From NCBI RefSeq assembly GCF_034259325.1, contig NZ_JAXIVS010000009.1, forward strand, positions 248,001-312,000: a stretch of DNA of 64,000 nt, written 5' to 3'. The notes under the pieces are model-generated. The model searched no databases. It had not been told where the DNA came from and worked only from the letters and a program-made list of their open reading frames with translations. The translations under genes and the position numbers were made by a program. Each line of letters begins with the position of its first letter. Position 1 is the first letter of the stretch. Positions 55,765 through 64,000 of this stretch are shown one piece after another. This DNA is from Hyalangium ruber. Its GTDB lineage: Bacteria; Myxococcota; Myxococcia; Myxococcales; Myxococcaceae.

Positions 55765-58700
55765 TCAGACGGACACCGGGGTCTCCGACGGTGGCTTGGG
55801 CTCGCCGGAAGCAGGCGAAAGGGAGGGGTCTACCAATCCCCGTCCCTTCCAGAGAGCGAAGATGGCCGGGTAGACGGTGAGCTCCAACAGGAAGGACGTG
55901 ACGAGGCCACCCACCAGCGGCGCGGCGATGCGCTTCATCACGTCCGAGCCCGTACCCGTGCTCCACAACACAGGCAGCAGACCGATCATGTCGGTCAGCA
56001 CGGTCATCAGCTTGGGGCGGATGCGCCTGGCCGCCCCCTCGACGATGGCCTCCCGGAGGTCGGCCATGGAGCGCAGCCGCCCATCCTCCTCTGCCTTGCG
56101 GTGGGCGAGGGTGAGATAGAGCAGCATCACCACGCCTGTCTCCGCGTCGAGGCCCGCGAGCGCGATGAGGCCCACCCACACCGCGACGCTCATGTTGTAG
56201 TCCAGCAAGTACAGCAGCCACACTGCGCCAATGAGGCTGAAGGGCACCGCCAGCAGCACGATGGCCGTCTCCGCCACCGAGCGCGTGCTGAAATACAGCA
56301 GGAGGCACACCAGCAGTAGGGTGACGGGCACCACCACCGTCAGCTTGTCCTTGGCGCGCTCGAAGTACTTGAACTGGCCGCTCCACTCCACGCGCACCCC
56401 AGCAGGCAGCTTCACCTCGCGGGCCACCACCTGCCGGGCCTCTGCCACGTAGTCGGCAATGGGCCGGTCGGTATCCACGAAGACGTAGGTGAGGAGCTTG
56501 CCCCCCTCGCTGCGGATCATCGGCGGCCCCTGGACGAAGCGGATGTCCGCCACCTGCGAGAGGGGCACCTGCGCGCCGCCCGGGGTGGCCACCAGCACCT
56601 GCTGTAACAACTCGGGGCTGTCGCGGTACTCGCGGGCGTAGCGCACGTTGATGGGGTAGCGCTCGCGGCCCTCCACCGTCTGGGAGATGTTCGTCCCGCC
56701 GATGGCGCCCATCACCACCTCGTTGATGTCCTTCACCGAGAGCCCCAGGCGCGCGGCCGCCTCCCGCCTTACCTCGAAGTCGAGATAGAAGCCGCCGGTG
56801 GCGCGGTCCGCGAAGGCGCTGCGGGTGCCAGGCACTTGCGAGACAGCCTTCTCGATGGCCACCGCCGCCTTCTCGATGGTGTCGAGGTTATCTCCGAACA
56901 CCTGGATGCCCAGCGGGCTGCGGATACCGGTAGAGAGCATCTCCGTGCGCGTCTGGATGGGCATCCAGAAGATGTTGGGCATGCCGGGGTACTGGAGCTT
57001 CTCGTCCATCTCCTTGATGAGGGCCTCCCAGGTAAGCCCGGCTCGCCACTCGCCCTTCGGCTTGAGCACCACTGTCGTCTCGAACATGGACAGGGGCGCC
57101 GGGTCCGTGGGGCTCTCGGCGCGGCCAGCCTTGCCGAAGACGCTCACCACCTCAGGGATCTTCTTCAGCTCTCCGTCCATGGACTGGAGGGTGCGCGTGG
57201 CCTCGGTGATGGACATGCCAGGCGGTGCGGTGGGCATGTAGAGGACGACGCCCTCGTTGAGGGGCGGCATGAACTCGTTTCCCAGGCGCAGGAAGGCCGG
57301 TACGGTGAAGGTCATAGCCAGTACAGACAGTGCGACCACGGCCTTGGGGTGCCGCACGACGAAGCGCACCACTGGGGTGTAGAGAGCCACGATCCACCGG
57401 TTGAGCGGGTTGTCCTCCTCCTTGCGGATGCGGCCGCGAATGAACAGCACCGCTAGGGCGGGAGTGAGCGTCACCGCCAGCACCGCAGCGAAGCCCATGG
57501 AGTACGTCTTGGTGTAGGCCAGCGGCTTGAAGAGCCGCCCCTCCGTGGCCTCCAGCGTGAAGACGGGGAGGAACGCCACGGTAAGCACCAGCAGCGAGCC
57601 GAAGATGGAAGGGCCCACCTCCTGCATCGCGGAGATGATGACCTCGCGCCGCTCGCCGGGCCGCCCTTGCTCCTCCCACGCCTCCAGCTTCTTGTGGATG
57701 TTCTCGATGATGATGATGGAGCCATCCACCATGGCGCCCACGGCGACGATGATGCCCCCCAGGCTCATGATGTTGGCGGTGAGCCCCTGGTAGTACATGG
57801 GGATGAAGGCCAGCAGCACCGCGATGGGCAGGGTGAGGATGGGCACCAGCGCGCTGCGCACGTGCAAGAGGAAGAGGAAGATGATGAGGCTGACCACCAG
57901 CATCTCCTCCACCAGCGCGCGGGTGAGCGTGTCGATGGCCTCCTCAATGAGCCCCGAGCGGTCATAGGTGACGACGAGCGTGACGCCCTCTGGCAGGCTG
58001 GCACGTACCTCTTCCAGCCGCTCTTTCACTGCATCGATGACCGAGAGGGCATTCTCCCCGTAGCGCATCACCACGATGCCGCCTGCCACCTCGCCCCTTC
58101 CGTCCAACTCCGCCACGCCGCGGCGGATGTCTGGCCCAAGGCCCACCACGGCGACGTTCTTCACGAGCACCGGGGTGCCGGCCTCGTTCACCCTCAAGGG
58201 GATGTTCTCAATGTCCTTCGTCGAGCGGATGTACCCGCGGCCGCGGATGACATGCTCATGGCCGGCGATCTCGAGCACCCGGCCGCCCACATCCTCGTTG
58301 GATTCACGGATGGCACGAGCCACCTCGCCCAAGGTGACTCCGTAGGCGCGGAGCTGATTCGGGTCCACCTGCACCTGGTACTGCTTCACCATGCCGCCCA
58401 CGCTGGCCACTTCGGCCACCCCGGGCACGCTGGAGAGTGCGTAGCGCACGTGCCAGTCCTGGAGGCTGCGCAGCTCCGCCAGGGAGTGCTTGCCGCTCTC
58501 GTCTACCAGGGCATACTCGAAGACCCAGCCCACGCCGGTGGCGTCCGGCCCCAGCGTCGGAGTCACTCCCTCTGGCAGTTTGCCCCGGGCAGTCTCCATG
58601 TACTCGAGGACGCGGCTGCGGGCCCAGTACACGTCCGTGCCGTCCTCGAAGATGACGTAGACGAAGGACATGCCGAACATGGACTGGCCCCGAACCGCCT

Positions 58701-58968
58701 TCACCTTCGGCGCCGCCAGCAGGGAAGAGGAGATGGGGTAGGTGATCTGGTCCTCGACCAGATCCGGACTGCGTCCCATCCACTCGGTGAAGACGATGAC
58801 CTGGGTGTCGGACAAGTCCGGAATCGCATCCAGCTTTGTGTTGCGCAGGGCGAAGACGGCCCATGCCGCCAGGGTCCCGACCAACAGGACTGTGAGGAGC
58901 GGGCTGCGAGCACTGCGGGCGATGACTCGGCCTACCAGGCCCGACTGCGTGAGCTCAGTGGCCTGCAT
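55765..58968 (-). CDS. cusA: CusA-type Cu(I)/Ag(I) RND efflux permease
   Basis: A 1067-residue HME-RND pump of full length. All three methionines that bind Cu(I)/Ag(I) in E. coli CusA (M573, M623, M672) are present at the same offset: M578 in VVLYMPTAPPG, M628 in PLSMFETT and M677 in TEMLSTGIRSPLG. Helix 4 has VGAMVDGSIIIIEN with D415, the CusA-type proton relay. Export of monovalent copper and silver is therefore well supported. It starts (ATG with GGAGG upstream) inside the end of the cusB gene with a 14-base overlap. Confidence 0.95.
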   Translation of the reverse strand: MQATELTQSGLVGRVIARSARSPLLTVLLVGTLAAWAVFALRNTKLDAIPDLSDTQVIVFTEWMGRSPDLVEDQITYPISSSLLAAPKVKAVRGQSMFGMSFVYVIFEDGTDVYWARSRVLEYMETARGKLPEGVTPTLGPDATGVGWVFEYALVDESGKHSLAELRSLQDWHVRYALSSVPGVAEVASVGGMVKQYQVQVDPNQLRAYGVTLGEVARAIRESNEDVGGRVLEIAGHEHVIRGRGYIRSTKDIENIPLRVNEAGTPVLVKNVAVVGLGPDIRRGVAELDGRGEVAGGIVVMRYGENALSVIDAVKERLEEVRASLPEGVTLVVTYDRSGLIEEAIDTLTRALVEEMLVVSLIIFLFLLHVRSALVPILTLPIAVLLAFIPMYYQGLTANIMSLGGIIVAVGAMVDGSIIIIENIHKKLEAWEEQGRPGERREVIISAMQEVGPSIFGSLLVLTVAFLPVFTLEATEGRLFKPLAYTKTYSMGFAAVLAVTLTPALAVLFIRGRIRKEEDNPLNRWIVALYTPVVRFVVRHPKAVVALSVLAMTFTVPAFLRLGNEFMPPLNEGVVLYMPTAPPGMSITEATRTLQSMDGELKKIPEVVSVFGKAGRAESPTDPAPLSMFETTVVLKPKGEWRAGLTWEALIKEMDEKLQYPGMPNIFWMPIQTRTEMLSTGIRSPLGIQVFGDNLDTIEKAAVAIEKAVSQVPGTRSAFADRATGGFYLDFEVRREAAARLGLSVKDINEVVMGAIGGTNISQTVEGRERYPINVRYAREYRDSPELLQQVLVATPGGAQVPLSQVADIRFVQGPPMIRSEGGKLLTYVFVDTDRPIADYVAEARQVVAREVKLPAGVRVEWSGQFKYFERAKDKLTVVVPVTLLLVCLLLYFSTRSVAETAIVLLAVPFSLIGAVWLLYLLDYNMSVAVWVGLIALAGLDAETGVVMLLYLTLAHRKAEEDGRLRSMADLREAIVEGAARRIRPKLMTVLTDMIGLLPVLWSTGTGSDVMKRIAAPLVGGLVTSFLLELTVYPAIFALWKGRGLVDPSLSPASGEPKPPSETPVSV

Positions 58969-60721
58969 GATCGCCTCCCGTCCAGGAGTCCGTTGCTGAG
59001 CGGATGCGGCTCTCCGCGGCGATGAGGAAATTGCCGCTCGTCACAACCCTGTCCCCAGGCTTCAGGCCCTCCACGACCTCGTAGGTGTCCTCGCCCTTGA
59101 GGCCGAGCTTCACCTCCTGGGGCTTGAGGCGCCCCTCACCCAGGTCGACGAAGACGATCCGGCGCGGGCCTGTGTAGAGGACGGCGGACTCGGGGACCTG
59201 GAGGCGCTGGCCGCCCTTCACCACGAAGCGGACGTCCGCGTACATGTCTGGCCTGAGTTCGAGCCCCGGGTTGGGCAGCTCGATACGGATACGCCCGGTG
59301 CGCGTCGTTCCTTCCAGCGCAGGGTAGATGTAGCCGACGCGGCCCGCGTACTTCTTCCCAGGTAGGTAGGGGAGGGTGACCTCCACGGGCAGCCCTGTCT
59401 TCACCTGCGGCAGATCCTGCTCGTAGACATCCGCCTCCACCCACACCTTCTCCAGCGGAGCAATGCGGAAGAGGCGCTCGCCCGCCTTCACGGCCGCACC
59501 TTCCACGACGTTCTTCTCGATCACATAGCCGCTCGCTGGGGAGAGGAAGGGCATGTTCTCGATGGGCTCGCCGCTCTGGGCGATGCGCTCGATCTGTGCC
59601 GGCGTCAGTCCCCAGAGCTCCAGGCGCTTGCGCGCCGCGCCCACAAGGGATGCGTTCGCAGCGCTCTGGCTGTTACGCGCCAGCAGGTACTCCTGTTGGG
59701 CGGCATAGAGCTCGGGGCTGTAGAGGGTAAAGAGGACGCTGCCCCGCTTCACCGGCTCGCCCGTGGCGTTCACCCGCAGCTCATGGATGTAGCCATCCAG
59801 CTTGAGGGTGACATCCACCAGCGTCTTCTCATCGTAGGTGACGCGGCCGAGTGCCCGGAAAGACAGGTCCATCGGCGCCTTCTCCACCACTGCGGTCTTC
59901 ACCCCGATGCGCTGGCGGCGCGTGTCGTCCACCAGGATGACGCCGCTCTCCACCTCCGCGCGGGTGACGGGCGTGAGGTCCATGCCGCAGATGGGGCATT
60001 GGCCTGGGCCCTTCTGCTTCACCGAGGGGTGCATCGGGCAGGTGTAGTGGGCCACCTCGTTGCCTCCATGGGTGTGCCCCTCGGCGGATATGGCGGGAAC
60101 TGGAGGGCCCCACTGGCTGGGCGAGCCGCAGGCCAACATGCGTTGGCCCATGTACGGGTTCTCGAGCCGGGCGCCTCGCTGGAGCCACTTGTTGAAGCCC
60201 TTCACCATCGGGCACTCGAAGACGTGCCAGCCCTCCTGGAGGCGAGCGTCCCCGGCCACCAGCGAGATGAGGGAATGGCTTACCTCGGCGAAGCGCTGGC
60301 GCGCCTCCTGGAGGTCCTTCTCCTCACCGAGGCGCGAGGCCGCCTCCGCTCCTTTCCGGAGCCAGCCCGCCATGTCCGCAGAGTGGTTCTCGGCGGCCTC
60401 CGCTGCCTGGCGGAGCGCAGTGGCCATCTCCTCGGCTCTGGGAGCGAGGCCCTCCACACTGTCCTGGGCGAGCTGTGCCCGTATCGCCTCGTAGGACTGG
60501 ATGGCCGCCCGGGCGTACTCGAGCGCTGGTCCTGGCAGCACAGGGGCTGTGGGAAGCGGCGCGGCATGGGGCGAGGGGAACTCGGCGCTACCGGCCCCCA
60601 TCGGCTTCCCGGTGAACCAGCTCACGAGGGGCCTCCAGAGGAGGATTGCAAGCACGGCCAAAGCCAGCAGGCCGAGTGCCTGGAGGAGATGCCGGCGGCG
60701 CGTAGGGAGTTGGGGGCTCAT
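58955..60721 (-). CDS. cusB: CusB-type adaptor with DUF3347 and metal-binding domain
   Basis: A 588-residue adaptor anchored by an N-terminal membrane helix (11-29). It carries DUF3347, a copper-binding helical domain (about 64-198, ending FECPMVKGFNKWLQ and NPYMG), then a HHTHGG-like stretch and a heavy-metal-binding module TCPMHPSVKQKGPGQCPICG (228-246) with C228, C242 and C245. Then the lipoyl, hairpin and barrel domains follow. The C-terminus ends GGDHAGH. The order DUF3347-HMBD-adaptor is found in copper pumps. It overlaps cusC by 4 bases and cusA by 14. Confidence 0.93.
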   Translation of the reverse strand: MSPQLPTRRRHLLQALGLLALAVLAILLWRPLVSWFTGKPMGAGSAEFPSPHAAPLPTAPVLPGPALEYARAAIQSYEAIRAQLAQDSVEGLAPRAEEMATALRQAAEAAENHSADMAGWLRKGAEAASRLGEEKDLQEARQRFAEVSHSLISLVAGDARLQEGWHVFECPMVKGFNKWLQRGARLENPYMGQRMLACGSPSQWGPPVPAISAEGHTHGGNEVAHYTCPMHPSVKQKGPGQCPICGMDLTPVTRAEVESGVILVDDTRRQRIGVKTAVVEKAPMDLSFRALGRVTYDEKTLVDVTLKLDGYIHELRVNATGEPVKRGSVLFTLYSPELYAAQQEYLLARNSQSAANASLVGAARKRLELWGLTPAQIERIAQSGEPIENMPFLSPASGYVIEKNVVEGAAVKAGERLFRIAPLEKVWVEADVYEQDLPQVKTGLPVEVTLPYLPGKKYAGRVGYIYPALEGTTRTGRIRIELPNPGLELRPDMYADVRFVVKGGQRLQVPESAVLYTGPRRIVFVDLGEGRLKPQEVKLGLKGEDTYEVVEGLKPGDRVVTSGNFLIAAESRIRSATDSWTGGDHAGH

Positions 60722-62088
60722 TGTGGCGCTCCTTCCCGGGGAAGCCCGGGGATCTGGCCTGTGGCCCGGTCGAGTTCCGCCTGGCGGCGCGTCACGTCCG
60801 CCAGGGCCATCTGGGAGCGCAGCTCCAGGGTGCGCAGGTTGCGTTCCGCCTCGATGAGGGCCTGGAAGGCGTTCTTGCCGCTCTCGAAGCCAGCGCGCGC
60901 GGCGGCCACCTGATCGCGCGCGGCTGGGACGAGGCGCTCGCGGTACAGCTCGACCACGCGCCGCGCCGCCACGAGGCGGGTGCGTGCCTGTTCCACCTCA
61001 ACGCGGATGTTGTCGATGAGCCCCTCCTCCTCCATGCGCAGGCGCTGGAGGTGCGCCTCGGCTTCTTGTACCGCCGCCTTCCGCTTGCCGAGGTCGAGCG
61101 GGATGTTGATGGAGACGCCGGCCATGAACTGGTGGGGTGTGTCCATCCACATGGAGTTGTACGAGCCCATCACCCGGAGGTCCGGGTAGTAGTCGCGCCG
61201 GGCCAGGCGGACGGTCGCTTCACCCCCACCGAGTCGGGCTCGCAGACCCGCCAGCTCTGGCCGATGGCGCAACGCCTCCTCCTGGAGCAGCTCACTCGGC
61301 CTGGGACCTTCCGCCGGTACGGGTAGGTTCTCCGGGGGAGGTGGCAGCGCCGCCGCTGGAGGTCGGTGCAGCAAGCCGTTGAGCTGAGCACGTAGGAGAT
61401 CGCGCTCCGACTCGAGCGACACCTTCTCGCGCAGCACGTCACTCAGTGCTACCTCTGCCTGCAGCGGGTCCTGCTGTGAGGCGCGGCCTACGACGTACTG
61501 GGCCTCGGCGCTCTTCTTGAGCTGCTCGAGCAGCCGCAGGTGCTCGTCGGTGATGCCGAGGGAGCGCTCCACAACGAACAGATCGTCGAAGAACGTGGAG
61601 GCCATGAGCGCCAGGCGAAGCCGCAACTCCTCCATGTCCTCGCGCATGATCTCCGCCTCGGCGAGCACAACCTCGCCTCGCAGCCCCCTCTTTCCGGGGA
61701 AGGGGAGCTGTTGGCTGAGCTCCACGGTTTGTCCGAAGCGCTCCCCTCCGCTGATGCTCAGTGGCGCGACGCTGTAGGAGAGCATCGGATCTTCGAGAGC
61801 AGTCTCCTGGGGGTACCGAGCGAGGGCGGCTCGCCATGCCTGGCGTGCTGCTTCCAGAGAAGGACTGCGCGCGAGCACCTGCCGGACGAGCTCTGCGCGG
61901 TCCAGGGCGAGGGCCTGCGAGAACGGATTGGCTTCAGAAGGACGTGGTGCCTGCTGGGTGAGGGCCGCTGACTGCGTCTGAAGACGACGCTCATCAGCAA
62001 CGGCCGAATCGCTCCAGAGGATGACGGTCGCGCAAGTGACAAGGGCAGCCCCCATGGTGGGCCGCCCACTTCGTCTGTGGGGTGACAT
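60718..62088 (-). CDS. cusC: CusC-type TolC-family outer-membrane channel
   Basis: About 456 residues from ATG 62088, chosen because AGGAG lies seven bases upstream; a GTG at 62166 is in frame. A signal peptide ends SDSAVADE. The mature protein has two TolC halves (SPSLEAARQAWRAALARYP, LRVMGSYNSMWMDTPHQF) and long helical segments, ending in LRTLELRSQMALADVTRRQ. It is the outer-membrane part of the Cus pump. It directly precedes cusB with a 4-base overlap. Confidence 0.88.
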   Translation of the reverse strand: MSPHRRSGRPTMGAALVTCATVILWSDSAVADERRLQTQSAALTQQAPRPSEANPFSQALALDRAELVRQVLARSPSLEAARQAWRAALARYPQETALEDPMLSYSVAPLSISGGERFGQTVELSQQLPFPGKRGLRGEVVLAEAEIMREDMEELRLRLALMASTFFDDLFVVERSLGITDEHLRLLEQLKKSAEAQYVVGRASQQDPLQAEVALSDVLREKVSLESERDLLRAQLNGLLHRPPAAALPPPPENLPVPAEGPRPSELLQEEALRHRPELAGLRARLGGGEATVRLARRDYYPDLRVMGSYNSMWMDTPHQFMAGVSINIPLDLGKRKAAVQEAEAHLQRLRMEEEGLIDNIRVEVEQARTRLVAARRVVELYRERLVPAARDQVAAARAGFESGKNAFQALIEAERNLRTLELRSQMALADVTRRQAELDRATGQIPGLPREGAPQ

Positions 62089-62204
62089 GACTCCGCTCCT
62101 GGGTGGACGAGCCAGCCGCCGGAGCACGAAGTCCCCAGCAACGGGCAGAACCCGACCGGCGGGCACACTCCCGTCGGTCGTGCCTTAGCGCACGTGTGCA
62201 GGGC

Positions 62205-62997: not shown

Positions 62998-63261
62998 ATG
63001 TCCAAGGAAGGCAAGTTCATCGAGCTCATCTTCGTCGTGAACGGTGAGGACACGCCGGTCAAGTTCAACATCAAGGAGCCCCTCCACGCAGCGCGCAACA
63101 AAGCCTTGGCCGAGAGTGGGAACACGGGGCGTCCTCCTCACGAGTGGGAGGTCCGCACTGAGGCAGGCGTGCTGCTCGAGGCGAGCGCGAAGCTGGAAAG
63201 CCTGGGGCTCCAGTCAGGTACGCGGCTGTTTCTCTCGTTGGGAGTGGGTGGAGGAGGGTGA
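62998..63261 (+). CDS. DUF2604-like ubiquitin-fold protein with C-terminal glycines
   Basis: 87 residues, soluble, from an ATG behind GGGAGAACCCA. The beta-grasp pattern is clear: KFIELIFVVNGEDTPVKFNI (two strands), LHAARNKALAESGNTG (helix) and LEASAKLESLGLQSGTRLFLSLG (the last strands). It ends GVGGGG, like the glycine tail through which ubiquitin-like proteins are activated and joined to targets. I match it to the DUF2604 family of prokaryotic ubiquitin-like proteins. The next gene, one base on, codes for an E2-like protein. Confidence 0.8.
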   Translation: MSKEGKFIELIFVVNGEDTPVKFNIKEPLHAARNKALAESGNTGRPPHEWEVRTEAGVLLEASAKLESLGLQSGTRLFLSLGVGGGG

Positions 63262-63262
63262 C

Positions 63263-63910
63263 ATGCGAGTGGAGCCAGCGGTTAGCCGCGCGAAGTTCGA
63301 CGCGGAGATCCGACACCTCGACGAGCAGGTGGCTCCGCTGCGGAGGTGGGGCTGTTGGGTGCAGCGCGCGCGCTACCCGGAAGTGGACGTCGTCTTCGTG
63401 CCGCGCACGCCCTTACGGATCTCGTTCTCCGTTCCGGTGTCTGGAGGGCTGATCGGCCAGGCGAAGCACGCGGTCGCACACGCACGGGAGGCTGAGCTCT
63501 CGGTCTTGGCGGCCCGGGCCTTTGGCGTTCGAGTGCTGATGGACGACTACGATCAGCGTGCTCCTTCTGTCACCTTCCGCGATCCGTGGACGTGGGAGTT
63601 GCTCTCGTTCGACGAGATGCTCCGGGCAATCCTGGTGGATGAGAAGGGCAACACGCGCCCTGTCCTGGTGGAAGCCCATCCGGTGACGAAGCAGCCCTTT
63701 CTGTGTCTGAGAGGGACGCGCGAGTACCACGAGCACCCTCAGCATTCAGGAGACGACTGGGTGCTGTTGCGCGGCGGCTTCGGGCTCTTCTCCTTGCTTT
63801 CAACCGTTTGGAGGACGTGCGTGGAGAACGCACGTCCCCACCTGCTGCTGAATCCACCGGCCCAGGTGCAGGTTCAATGGGAGCCGGTGGCTTCCAGGCG
63901 GATGAGGTAG
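63263..63910 (+). CDS. E2-like (ubiquitin-conjugating-enzyme-like) protein
   Basis: 215 residues from an ATG with GGAGGAGG upstream. The order of motifs follows the E2 fold: a first helix and strands (about 10-60), a helix (64-90), DDYDQRAPSVTFRDPWTWEL (94-113) like the YP-x-x-PP-x-V-x-F stretch of E2 enzymes, then HP (H139-P140), and PFLCLRG with candidate catalytic C148, followed by EYHEHPQHSGDDW and a final helix. I place it in the prokaryotic E2 clan, of the HP/CxLxG/EYH-HP type. It would take the ubiquitin-like protein from an E1 encoded further right. Confidence 0.75.
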   Translation: MRVEPAVSRAKFDAEIRHLDEQVAPLRRWGCWVQRARYPEVDVVFVPRTPLRISFSVPVSGGLIGQAKHAVAHAREAELSVLAARAFGVRVLMDDYDQRAPSVTFRDPWTWELLSFDEMLRAILVDEKGNTRPVLVEAHPVTKQPFLCLRGTREYHEHPQHSGDDWVLLRGGFGLFSLLSTVWRTCVENARPHLLLNPPAQVQVQWEPVASRRMR

Positions 63911-63916
63911 GAACTC

Positions 63917-64000
63917 ATGGCACTGGCGCGTTTCTTCGAGCGCGTTTTTAGGGCTGCTGGCCGGGCGCTCGTCGTCTCGCGCGAGACGCTGGAGACAGCC
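63917..64000 (+). CDS. start of a third gene of the ubiquitin-like operon, cut by the window
   Basis: Twenty-eight residues, MALARFFERVFRAAGRALVV and on, from an ATG with AGGAAC upstream and 6 bases after the previous stop. They are an amphipathic basic helix and give no family. In bacterial ubiquitin-like operons the next genes are an E1 (ThiF-like) and a JAB-type protease; either or a fusion would be expected here. Confidence 0.5.
   Translation, partial: MALARFFERVFRAAGRALVVSRETLETA

What the first reader, a model, noticed from the sequence alone, without database searches (positions are those of the whole stretch)
62998..64000. Ubiquitin-like protein and E2-like enzyme open an operon at the window edge
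Seen: an 87-residue beta-grasp-like protein ending in GVGGGG, one base before a 215-residue protein with an E2-like order of motifs (P-SVTF, HP, FLCLRG with C148, EYH-HP), and a third gene starting 6 bases later. Known: operons of a ubiquitin-like protein, E2, E1 and JAB protease (for example Bil and Bub) defend bacteria against phages by conjugation. Inferred: this is such an operon in a myxobacterium. The odd points are the four-glycine end, which may need trimming or may be used as it is, and the E2 with a large His-rich tail region.
Basis: partly seen in the sequence, partly recalled or inferred. Interest (0 to 1): 0.9.

Follow-up and report, generated by a model that had tools for sequence, protein, structure and literature searches.

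The report
Bil ubiquitin-like anti-phage conjugation operon
A myxobacterium carries a complete, enzyme-intact set of bacterial ubiquitin-style tagging genes (tag, E1, E2 and tag-remover), a known anti-phage system called Bil, in an unusual arrangement where the tag-remover gene faces the other way.

Summary
Past the window edge the same contig carries the predicted E1 (rest of bilD) and, 12 bases after its stop and on the opposite strand, a JAB/JAMM protease (bilC). All four proteins match solved Bil proteins: BilA 8tyx (2e-16), BilB 8tyz_C (3e-17), BilC 8tyx_B (3e-29), BilD 8tyz_A (1e-72). Catalytic residues are intact: BilB C148/E154/H156/H161 (the CEHH spacing of published BilB), BilD C408 (= Cys417), BilC E74 and HSHP-SxxD. 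Pfam's labels ('Metal_CEHH' for BilB, 'Prok-E2_C' for the E1 N-terminus) mislead; the BilB model finds solved BilB. The four-glycine end should need no trimming: the last glycine falls in an invariant column of BilA proteins. The operon sits in a defence island (Lamassu-like, CBASS, PD-Lambda-2, ProA-like genes). What is new is modest: the window and two other loci form a fully supported separate Bil branch in which bilC is convergent (every other locus with bilC and bilD is collinear) and BilB carries a branch-specific insertion. Phage defence by this copy, and its targets, are inferred.

The parts
62998..63261 (+). bilA: 87-aa single beta-grasp ubiquitin-like modifier (Pfam DUF2604), ends ...FLSLGVGGGG; Gly87 is the predicted conjugated residue
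   Evidence: phmmer to 8tyx/8tyz BilA 2e-16; DUF2604 1.2e-20; AlphaFold model pLDDT 85 finds BilA, ubiquitin, SUMO, ISG15; Gly87 column invariant in 16 BilA proteins
63263..63910 (+). bilB: 215-aa E2 (Pfam Metal_CEHH) with catalytic C148 and E154/H156/H161; branch-specific insertion at about residues 50-88
   Evidence: phmmer to 8tyz_C BilB 3.3e-17; CEHH spacing; AlphaFold/Foldseek to 8tz0_C, TM 0.76-0.81 by target length; insertion
63917..64000 (+). first 84 bases of bilD (E1, 511 aa); the gene continues past the window edge to L006:5453 (C9:313452); catalytic C408, ATP-site GLGAVG, four Zn-type cysteines C333/C336/C484/C486
   Evidence: phmmer to 8tyz_A BilD 1.4e-72 over residues 1-501; PADLOC BilD 1.4e-21. 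Outside the window and part of the system: bilC (JAB/JAMM deconjugase) L006:5466-6074 minus (C9:313465-314073), phmmer to 8tyx_B 3.1e-29

Best explanation
This is a complete Bil (bacterial ISG15-like) operon. BilD (E1) adenylates the C-terminal Gly87 of BilA and takes it up as a thioester on C408; BilA passes to C148 of BilB (E2); BilB attaches it to lysines of target proteins, most likely phage structural proteins made late in infection, so that progeny phages are defective. BilC removes the tag. Shown here: the four genes, their homology to structurally solved Bil proteins, intact catalytic residues, the predicted BilA and BilB folds, and the defence-island setting. Inferred: the chemistry in this copy, the phage targets, and that it is active. 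In this branch bilC lies convergent to bilD and so must have its own promoter, and BilA is encoded with its reactive glycine already exposed, so BilC is probably needed here to remove the tag rather than to mature it.
For: PDB homologues of all four subunits; catalytic residues conserved; folds; same gene set in dozens of genomes; defence island: Lamassu-like, CBASS, PD-Lambda-2 and ProA-like genes to the right; reported action of Bil on phage tail fibres (PMC11364771); patchy distribution, 3 of 195 Myxococcota genomes.
Against: No experiment on this copy. Its targets may differ: BilB is only 26-43% identical to relatives and has an insertion. PADLOC's BilA and BilB models do not match it, but they also miss the NGR234 locus.
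Confidence: 0.85

Rival explanations
1. The Pfam reading: the 215-aa protein is a metal-binding accessory protein and the E2 is the N-terminal domain of the E1 (Prok-E2_C + ThiF), so the reader named the wrong gene as the E2.
For: Pfam Metal_CEHH 4.2e-19 and Prok-E2_C 2.7e-13; the 2006 survey described row 6c that way (PMC1779556).
Against: The homologue 8tyz_C is the solved E2 BilB; a review states CEHH is the E2 active site and that the BilD N-terminus is an inactive adenylation domain (PMC11354881); the predicted fold finds BilB and then the E2 Ube2W weakly.
Confidence: 0.04
2. A working conjugation system whose main role is not phage defence but a general stress response.
For: The related Bub operons have not been shown to protect against phage, and such operons can be DNA-damage regulated (PMC13373217); no phage test exists for this copy.
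Against: Bil itself does block phages (PMC11364771), and this copy lies among several other defence systems.
Confidence: 0.09
3. A sulfur-carrier or cofactor pathway (ThiS/MoaD-ThiF-like).
For: ThiF domain and a Gly-ended beta-grasp protein.
Against: An E2, a JAMM protease and the E1 catalytic cysteine are all present; the E1 matches BilD over its full length; the genome has four other ThiF-family loci.
Confidence: 0.01

Closest known systems
Bil (BilABCD, bacterial ISG15-like), Ensifer/Sinorhizobium type with solved structures 8tyx, 8tyz, 8tz0
   Same: Same four subunits, same catalytic residues and spacing, single-Ubl BilA, E1 matched over its full length
   Different: BilD only about 34-36% identical; bilC convergent instead of third in a collinear ABCD operon; BilB insertion near residues 50-88 and a shorter stretch before the active Cys; BilA ends at the mature glycine rather than one residue beyond
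Two-Ubl BilA systems (Methylobacterium 8u38; Collimonas, tail-fibre tagging)
   Same: BilA C-terminal Ubl is homologous (8u38, 5.7e-12); same overall pathway
   Different: One Ubl domain here, not several
Short-BilB Bil type (Bradyrhizobium pBb1S5b L013; myxobacterium G183 L015)
   Same: Shares BilB active-site motif, BilC and BilD; BilB here ends in the GFxLxxL...VW style of that type
   Different: Much more distant E1 (about 30%), short BilB, different first gene; collinear order
Bub (bacterial ubiquitination-like) operons and type II CBASS Cap2/Cap3
   Same: E1/E2/JAB-type conjugation logic
   Different: PADLOC BilD scores 74.7 bits against 18.8 for the best CBASS E1-E2 model; here the E2 is a separate protein and a Ubl gene is present

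Membership tests
Bil (BilABCD) | Beta-grasp Ubl modifier with a C-terminal glycine (BilA) | tested here: met
   (2e-16 to 8tyx), fold, invariant Gly87
Bil (BilABCD) | Separate E2 with the C-E-H-H active-site motif (BilB) | tested here: met
   (3e-17 to 8tyz_C); C148/E154/H156/H161, spacing as in C138/E144/H146/H151; fold
Bil (BilABCD) | E1 with inactive plus active adenylation domain and catalytic Cys equivalent to Cys417 (BilD) | tested here: met
   full-length alignment, C408 opposite C417; invariant
Bil (BilABCD) | JAB/JAMM deconjugase in the locus (BilC) with Glu and HxHP-SxxD | tested here: met
   (3e-29); E74, H135/H137, S-x-x-D; but on the opposite strand
Bil (BilABCD) | Collinear four-gene operon A-B-C-D | tested here: not met
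   A-B-D then convergent C. This is the usual layout, not a functional requirement; two related loci share the change
Bil (BilABCD) | Covalent tagging of targets and protection against phage | not testable with these tools
   Needs experiments; genomic setting in a defence island is consistent
Type II CBASS (Cap2/Cap3) | E2 fused to the N-terminus of the E1, next to a CD-NTase | tested here: not met
   The E2 is a separate gene and the E1 matches BilD best. A CBASS cyclase lies about 16 kb away, with its own 4TM effector

The most novel reading that the evidence does not exclude
A distinct branch of Bil, spread over Myxococcota and two lineages of the Desulfuromonas phylum, in which the deconjugase is uncoupled from the conjugation operon (convergent gene, own promoter), the modifier is mostly made already mature, and BilB carries a branch-specific insertion; tagging and tag removal would be separately regulated and the insertion could change target choice.
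Probability: 0.35. Interest if true: 0.45.

Novelty: new variant of a known kind. Interest (0 to 1): 0.33.

Why it matters
It extends a characterised bacterial ubiquitination-like anti-phage system to a separate branch, and shows that public labels (Metal_CEHH, Prok-E2_C) and PADLOC's BilA and BilB models fail on it, so such operons are probably under-counted. A modifier encoded in mature form beside a separately transcribed deconjugase is a clean natural case for asking whether BilC is needed for anything but tag removal.

Tried and rejected
Metal-binding role of the 215-aa protein: rejected on the solved homologue and predicted fold. Phage-borne or viral copies: none found in INPHARED phages or IMG/VR. 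The idea that a mature BilA tail explains the convergent bilC: not supported as a rule, since many collinear loci also end at the glycine (for example R. etli) and L016 has two further residues. BilC tree: the three convergent BilC proteins fall outside the large collinear group but do not form one clade (short protein, weak resolution). Empty site: the left-flank DNA is found in relatives only in pieces at about 70% identity, so no clean insertion site was obtained. The main Bil papers (Chambers 2024, Hoer 2024, Gong 2025) are not held (one search used a wrong DOI), so whether they already show convergent bilC could not be checked.

Full report
WHAT IS THERE. The window ends inside the third gene. 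The window is G000:C9:248001-312000 and the contig runs on (L006 = C9:308000-327900). The third gene encodes a 511-aa E1-like protein (L006:3918-5453). Twelve bases beyond its stop, on the opposite strand, is a JAB/JAMM protease (L006:5466-6074 minus). Homology starts at residue 43, so the true bilC start may be the ATG at residue 37.

IDENTITY. phmmer against the PDB gives for each protein the matching subunit of the solved Bil system: BilA 8tyx_A 2.1e-16, BilB 8tyz_C 3.3e-17, BilD 8tyz_A 1.4e-72 over residues 1-501, BilC 8tyx_B 3.1e-29. PADLOC agrees for BilC and BilD. Pfam calls the 215-aa protein Metal_CEHH and the E1 N-terminus Prok-E2_C, the view of the 2006 survey (PMC1779556 row 6c). 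A later review reports that CEHH is the active site of the E2 BilB (C138, E144, H146, H151) and that BilD has an inactive and an active adenylation domain with catalytic Cys417 (PMC11354881). Here C148/E154/H156/H161 has the identical spacing; C148 is invariant in the 24-26 homologues aligned; BilD C408 aligns with Cys417 and is invariant. BilC keeps E74 and HSHP-SxxD.

FOLDS. AlphaFold on 24 BilB homologues (mean pLDDT 75.7) finds BilB of the E1-E2-Ubl complex as the only significant hits (E 3.6e-9; TM 0.76-0.81 by target length), followed weakly by the eukaryotic E2 Ube2W. The BilA model (pLDDT 85) finds BilA first, then archaeal ubiquitin, ubiquitin, SUMO and ISG15.

THE FOUR-GLYCINE END. 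In the BilA alignment the last residue, G87, falls in an invariant column. Other BilA proteins either end at this glycine (R. etli, L014, L017, L040, L063 and more) or have further residues (A, V, G, C, CG, GR, NG, a long tail). The window's BilA is therefore encoded in what looks like the mature form; the BilC trimming reported for other BilA proteins should not be needed. This is inference from alignment.

A SEPARATE BRANCH WITH CONVERGENT bilC. Of the 49 loci first examined (GTDB scan, plasmids, two other myxobacteria), every one in which bilC and bilD could both be placed has them collinear, except the window and L016, a Desulfuromonas MAG. Many of the collinear loci are near-identical rhizobial copies; 35 distinct collinear BilD sequences entered the tree. 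A third convergent case, L063, was then found in another genome of the phylum of L016 (BilD 51% identical to the window's; bilC and bilD stops overlap by four bases). In the BilD tree the three convergent loci form one clade (support 100/99), beside the classical Bil proteins, with the short-BilB type (also collinear) further out; the root was placed at the midpoint. So collinear order is probably ancestral and bilC was inverted once. All three BilB proteins share an insertion at about residues 50-88 ending in A(R/Q)AFGVR, absent from the others. The window's BilD is 45-51% identical to the other two, so the arrangement is old and kept. Consequence (inference): bilC has its own promoter and can be regulated apart from conjugation.

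SETTING. To the right lie a ClpB-like AAA gene, an NrdG-like radical SAM gene and a 2084-aa kinase-helicase-nuclease related to ProA/Hhe/MADS6; then LmuB-like and Cap4/LmuA-like genes, a CBASS cyclase with a 4TM effector, and a PD-Lambda-2 Beta protein. Genes with GC3 of about 0.9 or more (phoU-pst) start near L064:8207, while the operon has GC3 about 0.79. Only 3 of 195 Myxococcota genomes carry a Bil E2 or E1. This is an accessory defence island.

MECHANISM. Adenylation and E1-E2-target transfer follow from the established Bil structures and biochemistry. Phage structural targets follow from the Collimonas Bil report (central tail fibre), as cited in PMC11364771. Neither was tested for this copy. 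Bub operons, by contrast, have not been shown to protect against phage (PMC13373217).

VERDICT. A real, complete Bil operon: a known kind of system with a locus architecture that I did not find elsewhere outside its own branch. I could not read the primary Bil papers, so the claim that convergent bilC is undescribed is provisional; interest is accordingly modest.

Noticed in passing
L037:4485-5462, L038:4170-5516, L044:4296-5462, L053:3191-4357: BilA and BilB are one continuous reading frame in four Bil loci (Adhaeribacter, Methylorubrum, Hymenobacter, an Acetobacteraceae MAG): the Ubl tail runs straight into the E2, so a cut after the tail glycine, presumably by BilC, would be needed to release it.
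   Followed up: partly
L006:6501-15474 (right of the window): A set of a ClpB-like AAA protein, an NrdG-like radical SAM protein and a 2084-aa Zn-ribbon/kinase/DUF4011/helicase/REase protein, the reading frames overlapping by four bases; related to anti-phage ProA/Hhe/MADS6 but far below their cut-offs, so possibly an undescribed defence system.
   Followed up: partly
L006:17969-19882 and L064:547-4992: Lamassu-like pair (LmuB-like, Cap4/LmuA-like), a CBASS cyclase with 4TM effector, and a PD-Lambda-2_C Beta protein: a dense defence island.
   Followed up: partly
L055:4327-7405: Bil locus of Mesorhizobium sp. ORS3324 has bilB and bilD broken into several frames: a decaying copy.
   Followed up: no
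L010, L013, window proteins: PADLOC v2.0.0 BilA and BilB models match neither the window's proteins nor the NGR234 or Bradyrhizobium ones, so Bil loci of these types are likely to be missed or called incomplete.
   Followed up: partly
L063:5792-6655: A 287-aa gene just upstream of the convergent bilC in G387, same strand, with no Pfam match; could be a co-transcribed partner.
   Followed up: no
window 55765-62166, minus strand: CzcA/CusA-type heavy-metal efflux set (RND pump, membrane-fusion protein, TolC-like protein) directly left of the operon, judged from the translated ORFs.
   Followed up: no
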